Below are positions 55,550-59,183 of a stretch of 64,000 bases of DNA, piece by piece. The DNA is from Akkermansia muciniphila (GTDB lineage: Bacteria; Verrucomicrobiota; Verrucomicrobiia; Verrucomicrobiales; V1-33), in NCBI GenBank assembly GCA_945900785.1, contig CAMDJM010000019.1:1-64000 (forward strand), read 5' to 3'. Each line of letters begins with the position of its first letter. Positions within the stretch are counted from its first letter, which is position 1. The notes beneath the pieces are model-generated. The model had not been told where the DNA came from and made no database searches. It saw only the letters and a list, made by a program, of their open reading frames with translations. Position numbers and translations under genes: made by a program.

Positions 55550-55864
55550 TCAGGGTTCGGCTGCGACAACCTTGTCGGCCAACCGGGCGACGAGTTCGTC
55601 ATCAAACACATGGCGGTCCCGGGACCGGTCCCGCAAATAAGCCAGCGCCTCATAGCGTGCGACACCGAACGCCCACTTCCGAAAATTCCGGGCTTCCTCA
55701 AATCCGCCGATTTTTTCCCAAACGACAACCGCGACATCCTGCATCACCTCGGACGCATCTGCACGGGTCGGAACCAAAGAGCGCACAAACATGCGCAACG
55801 CCGGTTCGTGCTCGGTAAAGAGCCTCAAAAACTGGCGGTTTTGATCGTCACTCTGCAAATGCAT
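55550..55864 (-). pseudogene. ECF sigma factor truncated after region 2
   Basis: 104 residues with the start and region 2 of the Rhodopirellula/Verrucomicrobium-type ECF sigma family (RQFLRLFTEHEPALRMFVRSLVP, ASEVMQDVAVVVWEKIGGF, NFRKWAFGVARYEALAYLRDR, VFDDELVARLAD). The chain stops at KVVAAEP where intact members continue into region 4 (total about 170-180 residues). No region-4 sequence is visible in any frame in the 71 bases to the DUF1501 start. It cannot bind the -35 box in the usual way. In other PVC genomes this sigma type precedes DUF1553/DUF1501 genes, so it is probably the deleted former regulator. Confidence 0.75.
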
Positions 55865-55995: not shown

Positions 55996-56077
55996 CGAAT
56001 CCATCAAGCTGGAAAAGACATTTAGGGTATTTTTCCAGAGAACCCATTCGCGTTTATTCGCGTTCATTGGCGGTTAA
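55996..56077. repeat. palindromic repeat, copy 1
   Basis: 82-base copy of the element CGAATCCATCAAGCTGGAAA ... GCGTTCATTGGCGGTTAA. It holds an inner hairpin CTGGAAAA/TTTTCCAG. The reverse strand supplies the last codons and the TAA stop of the GxxExxY gene (TANERE-stop). It differs from the other two copies at a few bases, e.g. GTTTATTCGCG for GTTGATTCGCG. Confidence 0.85.
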
Positions 56078-56467
56078 ACCTGCTTCCAAAATGACCCGTT
56101 TCACTTCGAGTTTGGCGTGCTTGAAGTTGATGATAAGGCCGAGCGGGAGGCCGGTCACGCGCAGGTAGTTGAGCATCTGAGCCAGTTCGTAGTCAGTGAT
56201 GCGGTCGATTGTTTTCGTGTCCACGATGATGCTGCCGTGAAGGATGAGGTCAGGAATGAACTCGCCGACGCGGCAGCCTTTGTAATCGACGGGGAAGCGC
56301 GGCTGTTGGTCGTAAGAGATTTTGCGGAGGCGGCATTCCACCACCAATGCGTTCTCGTAAATTTTTTCGTTCAGGCCGTTTCCGATCGTGTTGTGCACTT
56401 CCATGGCGGCTCCGGTGATGGCATAAACTTCATCTTTGAAAAGTAGTGGTTTTGGGAAAAAGGCCAT
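56054..56467 (-). CDS. GxxExxY protein (PD-(D/E)XK nuclease superfamily)
   Basis: 137 residues. The name motif lies in HNTIGNGLNEKIYENALVVECRLRKI. The nuclease-like core follows: VGEFIPDLILHGSIIVDTKTIDRIT, giving D...(x)K-type acidic residues, and LNYLRVTGLPLGLIINF. These short proteins are widespread, often in many copies, with no proven function. The gene begins in one repeat copy (ATG right after TTAAAAAACGC on the minus strand) and takes its last codons and stop from another (copy 1), so gene and repeat form one unit. Confidence 0.85.
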   Translation of the reverse strand: MAFFPKPLLFKDEVYAITGAAMEVHNTIGNGLNEKIYENALVVECRLRKISYDQQPRFPVDYKGCRVGEFIPDLILHGSIIVDTKTIDRITDYELAQMLNYLRVTGLPLGLIINFKHAKLEVKRVILEAGLTANERE

Positions 56468-56586
56468 GCGTTTTTTAATTAACCGCCAATGAACGCCAAT
56501 GAACGCGAATCCATCAAGCTGGAAAGGGCTTTTGTGGGATTTTCCAGAGAATCCATTCGCGTTGATTCGCGTTCATTGGCGGTTAA
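56462..56586. repeat. palindromic repeat, copy 2 (long form)
   Basis: 125 bases that match copy 3 almost throughout. The span from TTAACCGCCAATGAACGC (near 56478) to GCGTTCATTGGCGGTTAA (56586) is a long imperfect palindrome of about 110 bases with the inner hairpin CTGGAAA/TTTCCAG. It overlaps the start of the GxxExxY gene. The middle (AGGGCTTTTGTGGGAT) differs from copies 1 and 3. Confidence 0.88.
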
Positions 56587-56643
56587 ATCCTGCCATTTTT
56601 CTTTTTCGTCCCTGAAAAGCAGGGACTTGCGGAAGTCGGCCAT
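56479..56643 (-). pseudogene. remnant of a second GxxExxY unit
   Basis: Starts MADFRKSLLFRDE, matching the intact neighbour's MAFFPKPLLFKDE over 13 codons, then jumps after KEKWQD to LTANERE, the neighbour's C-terminal residues. About 115 codons between are missing. Because this repeat copy has GAATCAACGC where copy 1 has GAATAAACGC, the stop codon is absent and the frame runs on through the repeat. It is an internally deleted copy framed by repeats 2 and 3. Confidence 0.7.
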
Positions 56644-56763
56644 GCGTTTTTTAATTAACCGCCAATGAACGCCAATGAACGCGAATCCATCAAGCTGGAA
56701 AAGACATTTAGGGCATTTTTCCAGAGAATCCATCCGCGTTGATTCGCGTTCATTGGCGGTTAA
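56639..56763. repeat. palindromic repeat, copy 3 (long form)
   Basis: 125-base direct copy of the repeat at 56462-56586, 177 bases further on, with the same TTAATTAACCGCC ... GGCGGTTAA ends and inner hairpin CTGGAAAA/TTTTCCAG. It ends about 70 bases before the stop of the convergent-side tex gene. Confidence 0.88.
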
Positions 56764-56834: not shown

Positions 56835-59183
56835 CTATTTTTTTTTCTGGGCTTGGCTGAACCAGTCGTTACCTCCGCCGAAGGGATTGCCCATGCCGGT
56901 GCCGATGCCCCCGCTTTGCTGGGGGCGTTGGCCGCCGACATCACGGCGAGGTGGGCCGCCGTTGCCATTGCCGGGACCGTTTTGGCCGGGGGGCTTGCCG
57001 GACTTTTTCTCGAAGTCGGGTTTGGCTTTCATGCTGAGGGCGATGCGGTTCCGGGGGAGGTCGACTTCCATGACGGTGACCTGGACGGGCTGGCCGACTT
57101 TGACGACTTCGCTGGCGTCCTTGATGAAGTGGTCGGCGAGCTGGCTGACGTGGATGAGGCCGTCCTGGTGGACGCCGATGTCGCAGAAGGCCCCGAAGGC
57201 GGCGACATTGGTGATGATGCCGGGAAGCTTCATGCCGACCTGGAGGTCGGTGGGTTTATCGACGCCTTCGGCGAAGGCAAAGGCTTCAAATGTCCGGCGC
57301 GGGTCGCGGCCGGGTTTGGCGAGTTCGGCCACGATATCGGTCAGGGTGGGGAGGCCAACTTCGGGGGTGACGTAGCTTTGCAATTTGATGGAGGCGCGTT
57401 TCTTTTCGTCCTTGATGAGGTCGGTCACGGTGCAGCCGGCGTCGGTGGCCATTTTTTCCACTAACGCGTAGCGCTCGGGGTGGACGGCGCTGCTGTCGAG
57501 GGGGTGGGTGGCCCCCCGGATGCGGAGGAAGCCGGCGGCTTGCTCAAAGGCTTTGTCGCCGAGGCGGGGGACTTTTTTGAGGTCGGCGCGGGTGGTGAAG
57601 GGGCCATTGGCGTGGCGGAAGGCGACGATGTTTTCGGCGATGCCGCTGTTCAGTCCGGAGACGTAGGACAACAATTGCTTGGAAGCGGTGTTGAGTTCCA
57701 CGCCGACGCCGTTGACGCAACTTTGCACGCAGTCGTCCAGGGTGTTCTTTAAAAGGTTTTGTTCCACGTCGTGCTGGTATTGGCCGACGCCGATGGACTT
57801 GGGGTCGATCTTCACCAGCTCGGCCAGGGGATCCATCAAACGGCGGCCGATGGAGACCGCTCCGCGGACGGTGAGGTCGTGATCGGGGAACTCCTCGCGG
57901 GCGGCGTCGCTGGCACTGTAGATGCTGGCGCCGGATTCGTTGACCATAACGATGGTGATGGCGGCGGGGAGCTTGAGCTTGCGGATGAAGGCTTCGGTCT
58001 CGCGGCCGGCGGTGCCGTTGCCGATGGCGATGGCTTCGATTTTGTGTTTTTCGATCAGGGTGAGGACGGTGCGGGCGGCTTCTACCATCTGGCCCTGACT
58101 GCCGGCGGTGGGGTAGATGACGTCGTTGTGGAGGAGCTTGCCCTGGGCGTCGAGCACGACGGTTTTGCAGCCGGTGCGGAAGCCGGGGTCGATGGCGAGG
58201 GTGCGTTTTTCGCCCAGCGGGGCCGCGAGCATGAGTTCGCGGAGGTTTTCCGAGAAGATGCGGGAGGCTTCGAGGTCGGCTTTTTTCTTGGAGTTTAACC
58301 GGAGTTCCGTTTCCATGCCGGGGAAGAGGAGGCGCTTGCAGCCATCTGTTATGGCGAGGGCGATCTGGTCGGCGGCGGGGCCGCGGCCGGTGAGGAAGAG
58401 GCGCTTGGCGGCGTCAAAGCCACGGTCGTCCGGGATGGTGACGCGGAGCATGAGGAAGCCTTCTTTTTCGCCCCGGCGCATGGCGAGGAGGCGGTGGGAC
58501 GGGACCGCTTTGAGGGCTTCCGACCAGTCGAAGTAGTCGCGGAATTTGGCAGCGGCTTCGTCGGTGTCTTTGCCCATGAGGACTTTGCTGGCGAGGGTGG
58601 ATTCTTCCTCGTAGATCTTGCGGACGGCGGCGCGGACGGCGGCGTCATCGCTCATGCGCTCGCTGATGATGTCGCGGGCTCCTGACAAGGCTTCCTCGGT
58701 GGTTTTGATGTGGAGTTCAGCGTCAGGGCCGTCGGTTTTGATGTATTTGGCCGCTTCGGTGGTGGGATTGACGGAAACGTTGGCCTGTTCGGCAGTGAGC
58801 CAGTCGGCGAGGGGCTCGAGGCCTTTTTCCTTGGCGATGGTGGCGCGGGTGCGGCGTTTCGGGCGGTAGGGGGCGAAGATGTCCTCGAGCCGGGCCATGG
58901 TTTCGGCTTTGAGGAGGGCCGTCTTGAGGGAATCGGTGAGGAGTTTCCGTTCTTCGAGGGATTTGAGGATGGCGGCGCGGCGGGCGTCGAGTTCGGCGAG
59001 CTGGACGAGCCGGTCGCGGATGTTGGTGATGGCGACCTCGTCAAGTTCACCGGTGACCTCCTTACGGTAGCGGGCGATGAAGGGGACGGTGCCGCCTTCG
59101 GCGATGAGTTCGGCAGTGGCGGCGACCTGGGCAGGACGGAGTTTCAGTTCGGCGGCGACGCGGGCGATGTATTCGGGATTCAT
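56835..59183 (-). CDS. tex: Tex-like S1 RNA-binding transcription accessory protein
   Basis: 782 residues, normal for Tex. The N-terminal helical domain has GGTVPFIARYRKEVTGELDE and EDIFAPYRPKRRTRATIAKEKGLEPLADWL. The YqgF-like RNase H fold is near 325-440 (RTLAIDPGFRTGCKTVVLD, EAIAIGNGTAGRETEAFI). A helix-hairpin-helix region is near 480-560 (LLSYVSGLNSGIAENIVAFR). The S1 domain is near 650-720 (GIITNVAAFGAFCDIGVHQDGLIHVSQL). The tail is Gly/Pro/Gln-rich. Tex binds RNA/DNA and affects transcription and RNA stability in the cytoplasm. TTTTTCCCC abuts the ATG, and a tandem octamer repeat lies upstream. Confidence 0.96.
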   Translation of the reverse strand: MNPEYIARVAAELKLRPAQVAATAELIAEGGTVPFIARYRKEVTGELDEVAITNIRDRLVQLAELDARRAAILKSLEERKLLTDSLKTALLKAETMARLEDIFAPYRPKRRTRATIAKEKGLEPLADWLTAEQANVSVNPTTEAAKYIKTDGPDAELHIKTTEEALSGARDIISERMSDDAAVRAAVRKIYEEESTLASKVLMGKDTDEAAAKFRDYFDWSEALKAVPSHRLLAMRRGEKEGFLMLRVTIPDDRGFDAAKRLFLTGRGPAADQIALAITDGCKRLLFPGMETELRLNSKKKADLEASRIFSENLRELMLAAPLGEKRTLAIDPGFRTGCKTVVLDAQGKLLHNDVIYPTAGSQGQMVEAARTVLTLIEKHKIEAIAIGNGTAGRETEAFIRKLKLPAAITIVMVNESGASIYSASDAAREEFPDHDLTVRGAVSIGRRLMDPLAELVKIDPKSIGVGQYQHDVEQNLLKNTLDDCVQSCVNGVGVELNTASKQLLSYVSGLNSGIAENIVAFRHANGPFTTRADLKKVPRLGDKAFEQAAGFLRIRGATHPLDSSAVHPERYALVEKMATDAGCTVTDLIKDEKKRASIKLQSYVTPEVGLPTLTDIVAELAKPGRDPRRTFEAFAFAEGVDKPTDLQVGMKLPGIITNVAAFGAFCDIGVHQDGLIHVSQLADHFIKDASEVVKVGQPVQVTVMEVDLPRNRIALSMKAKPDFEKKSGKPPGQNGPGNGNGGPPRRDVGGQRPQQSGGIGTGMGNPFGGGNDWFSQAQKKK

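What the first reader, a model, noticed from the sequence alone, without database searches (positions are those of the whole stretch)
55996..56763. GxxExxY gene framed by three copies of a long palindromic repeat that supplies its start region and stop codon
Copies at 55996-56077, 56462-56586 and 56639-56763 share CGAATCCATCAAGCTGGAAA...GCGTTCATTGGCGGTTAA. The long form is a near-complete palindrome of about 110 bases with an inner hairpin. The gene's ATG follows one copy at once, and its last codons TANERE plus TAA are read from another. Gene and repeat therefore look like a single mobile or amplifying unit, and the PD-(D/E)XK fold of GxxExxY proteins could act on the hairpin.
Basis: partly seen in the sequence, partly recalled or inferred. 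Interest (0 to 1): 0.75.

Follow-up and report, generated by a model that had tools for sequence, protein, structure and literature searches.

The report
Nuclease gene with REPIN-like palindromes
A small bacterial nuclease gene of unknown role is framed, in this genome and in many bacterial phyla, by inverted DNA arms built from a three-fold repeated word that differs between kinds of the nuclease. This points to an undescribed selfish or domesticated element that resembles REPIN/RAYT systems but uses an unrelated enzyme.

Summary
The GxxExxY gene (56054-56467, minus) lies between inverted arms belonging to three palindrome copies, one truncated.

The pattern is general. Of window-type GxxExxY genes from several phyla, 75/80 are bracketed by inverted repeats, against 5/981 control positions. 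The arms follow one rule, AACC + CRCNRAT x3 at exactly 10-bp spacing. Other GxxExxY subfamilies have other words. The word follows the protein tree (10 changes; shuffles at least 37), and copies within one genome usually differ in word.

Across 195 genomes of the phylum, 1497 of 1512 arm copies lie in the 104 genomes with GxxExxY. Most arms are solo. Elements sit just after stop codons in gene rows, leave no target duplication, and are present or absent at one site (pheS-pheT), yet can persist for long (carA-purA). A clade with a broken active site lacks arms.

Best reading: a REPIN/RAYT-like partnership with a PD-(D/E)XK nuclease in place of the HUH enzyme. Binding and cutting are inferred, not shown. 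Four-helix-bundle (TIGR02436) genes have a similar frame, so a shared mobiliser is not excluded.

The parts
56054..56467 (-). GxxExxY gene, 137 aa, PD-(D/E)XK nuclease family; active-site residues E34, D73, D83, K85 present
   Evidence: TIGR04256 5e-38, PF13366 1.1e-35; AF2 model pLDDT 93; closest solved folds are Cas4/RecB-type nucleases; residues by alignment
56479..56586 (.). Full palindrome (arm 56479-56510, core, arm 56555-56586) upstream of the gene
56655..56763 (.). Second full palindrome (arms 56655-56686 and 56732-56763), inner hairpin about 56695-56724
55996..56077 (.). Truncated palindrome downstream of the gene: core plus one arm (56046-56077), which supplies the codons TANERE and the stop
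56587..56654 (-). Internally deleted GxxExxY remnant (MADFRKSLLFRDE..., then LTANERE from the next arm) between the two full palindromes
   Evidence: First 50 nt align to the gene's start, score 26 against a shuffle maximum of 14.5; ORF
56481..56510 (+). Arm: AACCGCCAATGAACGCCAATGAACGCGAAT, three CGCNAAT words at 10-bp spacing
   Evidence: pattern hit; arm logo from 237 arms
56046..56075 (-). Arm on the far side of the gene, inverted: AACCGCCAATGAACGCGAATAAACGCGAAT
56555..56584 (-). Arm of the upstream palindrome
56657..56686 (+). Arm of the second palindrome
56732..56761 (-). Arm of the second palindrome, 71 bp after the stop codon of tex
56835..59183 (-). tex (host gene), co-directional and just upstream of the element; no GxxExxY follows tex in other genomes of the family
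55550..55864 (-). Short ECF sigma-70 gene (region 2 only), next co-directional host gene

Best explanation
The locus is a nuclease-palindrome partnership that works like REPIN/RAYT. The GxxExxY protein is the recogniser of its own arms: three copies of a short word, phased at about one helical turn, inverted on either side of its gene and on either side of short cores (the palindromes). The palindromes, and cut-down copies such as the one in the window, are the non-autonomous form that spreads to other intergenic sites. The gene copy spreads rarely, settles just after stop codons inside gene rows so that it is transcribed with them, and can then stay for a long time. Shown here: the anatomy, its generality, the word-protein match, the genome-level dependence of arms on GxxExxY, presence/absence at orthologous sites, and absence of arms at catalytically broken paralogues. 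Inferred: that the protein binds the words, cuts in or beside the palindrome, and that host repair or replication then copies the palindrome.
For: Bracketing inverted repeats at 75/80 window-type genes from several phyla against 5/981 control positions; with gapped scoring, 70/79 and 64/119 (all subfamilies in the order) against 19/2781; 26 of 27 pheS genes scored as a control are negative. Arm logo: three CRCNRAT words at exactly 10 bp, inverted across the gene. Word class changes 10 times on the protein tree against at least 37 in 200 shuffles (order set 8 against at least 28); most genomes with 2-6 copies hold different words. 1497/1512 arms lie in GxxExxY-bearing genomes; 48/48 arm-rich genomes have the gene; Fisher p 2e-18. 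Exact copies of one gene's arm recur at solo places (G015). pheS-pheT holds a framed GxxExxY in 5 genomes and only 18-187 bp in the 15 others where the pair is adjacent. Cut-down gene copy in the window. Active site intact: 139/166 framed; broken: 2/29. Framed copies also in Bacteroides and Sphingomonas.
Against: No binding or cutting data. A linked passenger gene would also covary with its frame. The broken-active-site set is essentially one clade, so that contrast is not replicated on the tree. G015 has 70 arms but its one GxxExxY has lost the catalytic lysine. TIGR02436 four-helix-bundle genes, not nucleases, have a similar frame with 7-nt words (16/27). Y1 transposase presence also correlates with arms among GxxExxY genomes (67/93 against 2/11). 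27 of 166 intact genes have no clear frame. No target duplication marks an insertion event.
Confidence: 0.6

Rival explanations
1. Shared-mobiliser reading: iterated-arm palindromes are moved by some other machinery in trans (host replication or recombination, a Y1 transposase or a reverse transcriptase). GxxExxY and four-helix-bundle genes are passengers that became trapped between arms.
For: TIGR02436 genes, a different fold, are framed by iterated 7-mers in the same genomes (16/27 with score >=20). Y1 transposases are common in these genomes, and among GxxExxY genomes arms are commoner where Y1 is present (67/93 against 2/11). The G015 gene copy is catalytically altered yet 70 arms remain.
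Against: Different words for different GxxExxY subfamilies within one genome do not fit one shared recogniser. Y1 without GxxExxY gives almost no arms (5/45 genomes, 11 copies), while two genomes without a detected Y1 have 31 and 21 arms. REPs of RAYT type are single small palindromes, many with a GTAG-like tag, not three-word arms (PMC3733652, PMC8266576).
Confidence: 0.2
2. Homing reading: GxxExxY is a homing-type endonuclease. Solo palindromes are its empty sites; it cuts them, and its own gene, lying between matching arms, is copied in by break repair.
For: A gene between two arms equals a palindrome with the gene in place of the core (window anatomy). No target duplication. Independent arrivals at the same site, pheS-pheT. 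PD-(D/E)XK homing enzymes exist, e.g. I-Bth0305I, which is among the weak structure matches.
Against: Solo arms far outnumber genes (median 4 arms per gene, up to 70), so the palindromes must spread on their own. No pair was found in which a solo palindrome in one genome is the same palindrome filled by the gene in a close relative; the solo arms at pheS-pheT in G027 and G003 carry other words.
Confidence: 0.12
3. Regulatory or RNA reading: the inverted repeats are RNA hairpins, terminators or processing sites that belong to the transcription unit, not mobile DNA; comparable to 23S rRNA intervening sequences, where repeats frame a small ORF and are cut from the transcript.
For: Strong hairpins; elements are co-directional with the gene row and start within 60 bp of an upstream 3' end in 44/60 loci.
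Against: Three exact 10-bp-phased words per arm, with word identity that follows the protein, are not needed for a hairpin. Solo copies and presence/absence at orthologous sites. No Rfam family.
Confidence: 0.06
4. Coincidental neighbourhood: ordinary genome repeats that happen to lie beside the gene.
For: None found beyond the single locus.
Against: 75/80 against 5/981; 48/48 arm-rich genomes carry the gene.
Confidence: 0.01

Closest known systems
REPIN/RAYT (REPtron, TnpA-REP) systems
   Same: Short palindromes made of two inverted units, dispersed between genes; a few diverse cognate nuclease genes per genome, flanked by their own unit; several flavours in one genome, each with its own gene; long vertical persistence of the gene (PMC3116915, PMC8266576, PMC8049555).
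   Different: Enzyme is PD-(D/E)XK, not HUH/Y1. Each arm is three tandem 7-mers at 10 bp instead of one small hairpin with a GTAG-like tag. The gene itself sits between inverted arms, inside gene rows.
23S rRNA intervening sequences / four-helix-bundle (TIGR02436) elements
   Same: Small ORF framed by inverted repeats (knowledge for the rRNA elements); in these same genomes the TIGR02436 genes also have iterated-word frames.
   Different: Different protein fold and different word (7-nt period, AGTTNAA-like); the GxxExxY elements examined lie between protein-coding genes.
MITEs and IS-derived miniature elements
   Same: Cut-down copies keep the ends and lose the gene body (window 56587-56654).
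   Different: No target site duplication; no transposase of a known family; copies are few at the gene level.
Tn7-type TnsA / PD-(D/E)XK homing endonucleases
   Same: PD-(D/E)XK nuclease used for mobility; several recognition words at each end, as TnsB sites at Tn7 ends (knowledge).
   Different: No partner transposase gene was seen beside the window gene; not a homing enzyme inside an intron or gene.

Membership tests
GxxExxY (TIGR04256 / PF13366 PDDEXK_3) | Profile match above the curated cut-off | tested here: met
   130 bits (cut-off 35) and 123 bits (cut-off 22)
GxxExxY (TIGR04256 / PF13366 PDDEXK_3) | PD-(D/E)XK active-site residues and fold | tested here: met
   E34, D73, D83, K85 present; AF2 model pLDDT 93; weak but consistent matches to Cas4, LHK-exonuclease and Holliday-junction resolvase folds
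GxxExxY (TIGR04256 / PF13366 PDDEXK_3) | Nuclease activity | not testable with these tools
   needs biochemistry
REPIN/RAYT | Dispersed extragenic inverted pairs of a short unit | tested here: met
   solo inverted pairs in G000 C12 and G015; 1512 arms in 195 genomes
REPIN/RAYT | Cognate gene flanked by the unit; flavour matches the gene | tested here: met
REPIN/RAYT | Enzyme is a Y1/HUH transposase | tested here: not met
   enzyme is PD-(D/E)XK; Y1 alone does not explain the arms
REPIN/RAYT | Unit carries a GTAG/CGTC-like tag beside a small palindrome | tested here: not met
   arm logo AACC + (CRCNRAT) x3 has no such tag
23S rRNA intervening sequence | Inserted in rRNA with a four-helix-bundle ORF | tested here: not met
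   sites are next to protein genes; protein is PD-(D/E)XK
DDE-type insertion sequence / MITE | Terminal inverted repeats with target site duplication | tested here: not met
   inverted repeats yes, no duplication in 64 elements
Homing endonuclease element | Filled and empty versions of the same recognition site | tested here: inconclusive
   pheS-pheT filled and empty across genomes, but no cognate solo palindrome at the empty site

The most novel reading that the evidence does not exclude
GxxExxY genes with their three-word inverted arms are a separate, bacteria-wide class of self-spreading or domesticated DNA element, driven by a Cas4/RecB-like PD-(D/E)XK nuclease that reads phased words, with no HUH, DDE or recombinase partner. 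Each protein subfamily would have its own readable word code.
Probability: 0.4. Interest if true: 0.9.

Novelty: new variant of a known kind. Interest (0 to 1): 0.78.

Why it matters
GxxExxY proteins are widespread (104/195 genomes of this phylum, up to 12 copies each), but full-text searches of the held library found essentially no functional study. If the reading is right, an unexplained protein family gets a role and a predicted DNA target written beside each gene. It would also be a second, unrelated enzyme solution to the REPIN/RAYT way of life, which bears on why bacteria keep repeat populations at all. The word-protein pairing over many subfamilies would be a ready-made data set for decoding recognition by a small nuclease.

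Tried and rejected
Target site duplications: none. Conserved RNA family: only sub-threshold hairpin hits to miRNA models, taken as chance. A clean empty site for the window copy itself: tex neighbours are rearranged in the relatives, so absence after tex is shown but not a clean empty site; pheS-pheT served instead. Phylogenetically independent test of active site against arms: only about 3 independent pairs, no power. Viral contigs, phages and E. coli: no match to the window sequence or protein. Plasmids: 7 distant homologues, used to extend the taxonomic range. A 20-protein alignment was too diverse for the locus search and was replaced by the window subfamily. Literature.

Full report
WHAT IS IN THE WINDOW. 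The GxxExxY gene runs from 56467 down to 56054 on the minus strand (137 aa; TIGR04256 130 bits, PF13366 123 bits). Around it are five copies of a 32-nt arm in alternating orientation: 56046-56077, 56479-56510, 56555-56586, 56655-56686 and 56732-56763. Pairs of arms enclose either a core of 44-45 nt with its own small hairpin (the palindromes 56479-56586 and 56655-56763), or the gene, or a 68-nt spacer. A third palindrome downstream of the gene has lost its outer arm. The arm next to the gene's end supplies TANERE and the stop. The 68-nt spacer (56587-56654) is a cut-down gene: its first 50 nt align with the gene's start (score 26; best of 1000 shuffles 14.5), giving MADFRKSLLFRDE against MAFFPKPLLFKDE, after which it runs into the arm's LTANERE. 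The window therefore holds one whole unit, one deletion derivative and a truncated copy in a row. The row starts 71 bp after the stop codon of tex and is co-directional with it.

THE OWN GENOME. The arm end has only 11 hits genome-wide with up to 3 mismatches, 7 of them in the window. One is a solo palindrome of about 110 bp on contig C12, with the same ends and another core, in a row of tRNA-like pieces between a Ro-like and an RtcB-like gene (gene names by eye). The genome has four GxxExxY genes. Two others are also framed, by different arms (C87: AACCACGGATTTCACGGATGACACGGAT; C26: CCACGGATGGCACGGATGAAACGGAT); the fourth (C27) has no frame and no intact active site.

GENERALITY. A search with the window subfamily returned the best 80 loci from named GTDB genomes: Verrucomicrobiota, Planctomycetota, Lentisphaerota, Kiritimatiellae, Hydrogenedentota, Mariprofundus and Bacteroidota MAGs. 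Ungapped inverted repeats of score >=14 bracket 75/80 genes against 5/981 same-size positions in the same loci; at >=18 it is 53/80 against 0/981. Gapped scoring at >=20 gives 70/79 for these, 64/119 for all GxxExxY genes taken from 57 genomes of the order, and 19/2781 controls. pheS genes scored the same way are negative, 26 of 27. Outside these groups, distant homologues on a Bacteroides replicon and a Sphingomonas replicon are framed by their own arms (CACAGAG-like between radA and the next gene; CGCGAAG-like between fabD and fabG).

ANATOMY OF THE ARMS. The logo of 237 window-type arms is AACC RC NRAT NNA CRC NRAT NNA CRC NRAT: three 7-mers at exactly 10-bp spacing, pointing inward on both sides of the gene. 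Within one arm the three words tend to be the same. Other subfamilies have other words (CRCRGAG, ACAGGATT, CRCNRAA) with spacings of about 8-10. No target site duplication is seen in 64 elements. In 44 of 60 loci the upstream border lies within 60 bp of the 3' end of a co-directional gene.

WORD FOLLOWS PROTEIN. On a tree of 195 GxxExxY proteins the word class changes 10 times, against at least 37 in 200 shuffles; within the order set 8 against at least 28. Twenty genomes hold 2-6 framed copies, and in most of them the words differ between copies. Linkage alone could give part of this. But one shared recogniser in trans would make words uniform within a genome, and they are not.

ACTIVE SITE. 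Of 166 proteins with E, D, D/E and K in place, 139 are framed (score >=18); of 29 with a broken active site, 2 are. The broken set is essentially one clade (4 changes on the tree), so this is one evolutionary contrast, not many. One of the two exceptions is the single GxxExxY of genome G015 (K85T), which nevertheless has 70 arms.

GENOME-LEVEL DEPENDENCE. In 195 genomes drawn over the phylum, 104 have GxxExxY and 76 have window-type arms: both in 69, arms without the gene in 7 (Fisher p 2e-18). Of 1512 arm copies, 1497 lie in GxxExxY genomes; all 48 genomes with 8 or more arms have the gene. The reversed pattern, used as control, has no hit in any genome. These counts are not corrected for relatedness. 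Y1/REP-type transposases, the natural rival, do not substitute: Y1 without GxxExxY gives arms in 5/45 genomes (11 copies), and two GxxExxY genomes with no detected Y1 have 31 and 21 arms; still, among GxxExxY genomes arms are commoner with Y1 (67/93 against 2/11), which is unexplained.

MOBILITY AND PERSISTENCE. Between pheS and pheT, 15 genomes have 18-187 bp and five have 514-752 bp filled by a framed GxxExxY. Those five carry at least two different word classes, hence at least two arrivals; two short sites carry solo arms of other words. After tex, none of the family relatives whose tex surroundings were read has the window element. In contrast, eight genomes of Verrucomicrobiaceae and related families share a framed GxxExxY between carA and purA (gene names by eye from the protein ends), with protein identity (mean 0.72) above background (0.60) and correlated with that of the flanking genes: long vertical residence with arms kept. 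In G015, exact copies of the gene's arm recur at several solo places.

STRUCTURE. The AF2 model is confident (pLDDT 93). Foldseek gives weak matches, led by Cas4-type proteins (SSO0001, Argonaute-associated Cas4), LHK-exonuclease, the R2 retrotransposon protein and a Holliday-junction resolvase, which fits a PD-(D/E)XK nuclease. No solved structure is related by sequence.

INTERPRETATION. The parallel with REPIN/RAYT is close: few, diverse, vertically kept genes per genome, each with its own flavour of palindrome, the palindromes being the part that multiplies (PMC3116915, PMC8266576). The enzyme and the ends are different, so this is not a member; it would work like one. That the protein binds and cuts its arms is inference. 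The main reason for caution is that TIGR02436 four-helix-bundle genes in the same genomes also have iterated-word frames (7-nt period, 16/27), so the architecture may be older or wider than GxxExxY, or may depend on a shared process.

LITERATURE. Full-text searches for GxxExxY, PDDEXK_3, TIGR04256 and PF13366 gave three incidental mentions and no functional study. The library holds open-licence papers only, so an earlier description cannot be excluded.

Noticed in passing
L284-L313 (TIGR02436 loci in relatives; own copy L300): Four-helix-bundle (TIGR02436) genes are also framed by inverted repeats made of iterated 7-mers (e.g. AGTTTAAAGTTTCAAGTT, GGTTGATGGTTGATGG): 16 of 27 with score >=20.
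   Followed up: partly
L004 1140-1720 (G000 C12 about 31,000): The solo palindrome lies in a row of tRNA-like fragments between a Ro/TROVE-like and an RtcB-like gene (gene names by eye), as in RNA-repair operons.
   Followed up: no
L013 / G000 C26 43437-43727: The GxxExxY copy between pheS and pheT of the own genome is frameshifted near its C-terminus and looks like a recent pseudogene or an assembly error.
   Followed up: partly
L014 / G000 C27 9976-10317 and about 26 relatives: A GxxExxY clade with broken active-site residues and no frame; possibly a domesticated, non-nuclease branch.
   Followed up: partly
L058 about 145-400: Six direct arms in a row at exactly 45-bp spacing upstream of a GxxExxY gene, an array of arms rather than a palindrome.
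   Followed up: no
window 55550-55864 (-): ECF sigma gene of the Rhodopirellula/Verrucomicrobium family that is only 104 aa and covers region 2 alone; looks truncated.
   Followed up: no
L169 1086-3200 (G002 C330): In a same-genus relative an ATPase-like gene sits after tex between two copies of the tex C-terminal end (80 bp, 94%), with a degraded arm right after the first tex stop.
   Followed up: partly
G027 (L274) and G003 (L255) pheS-pheT gaps: Solo arms of other words in the same gap that holds framed GxxExxY genes elsewhere; the gap looks like a repeated landing site.
   Followed up: partly
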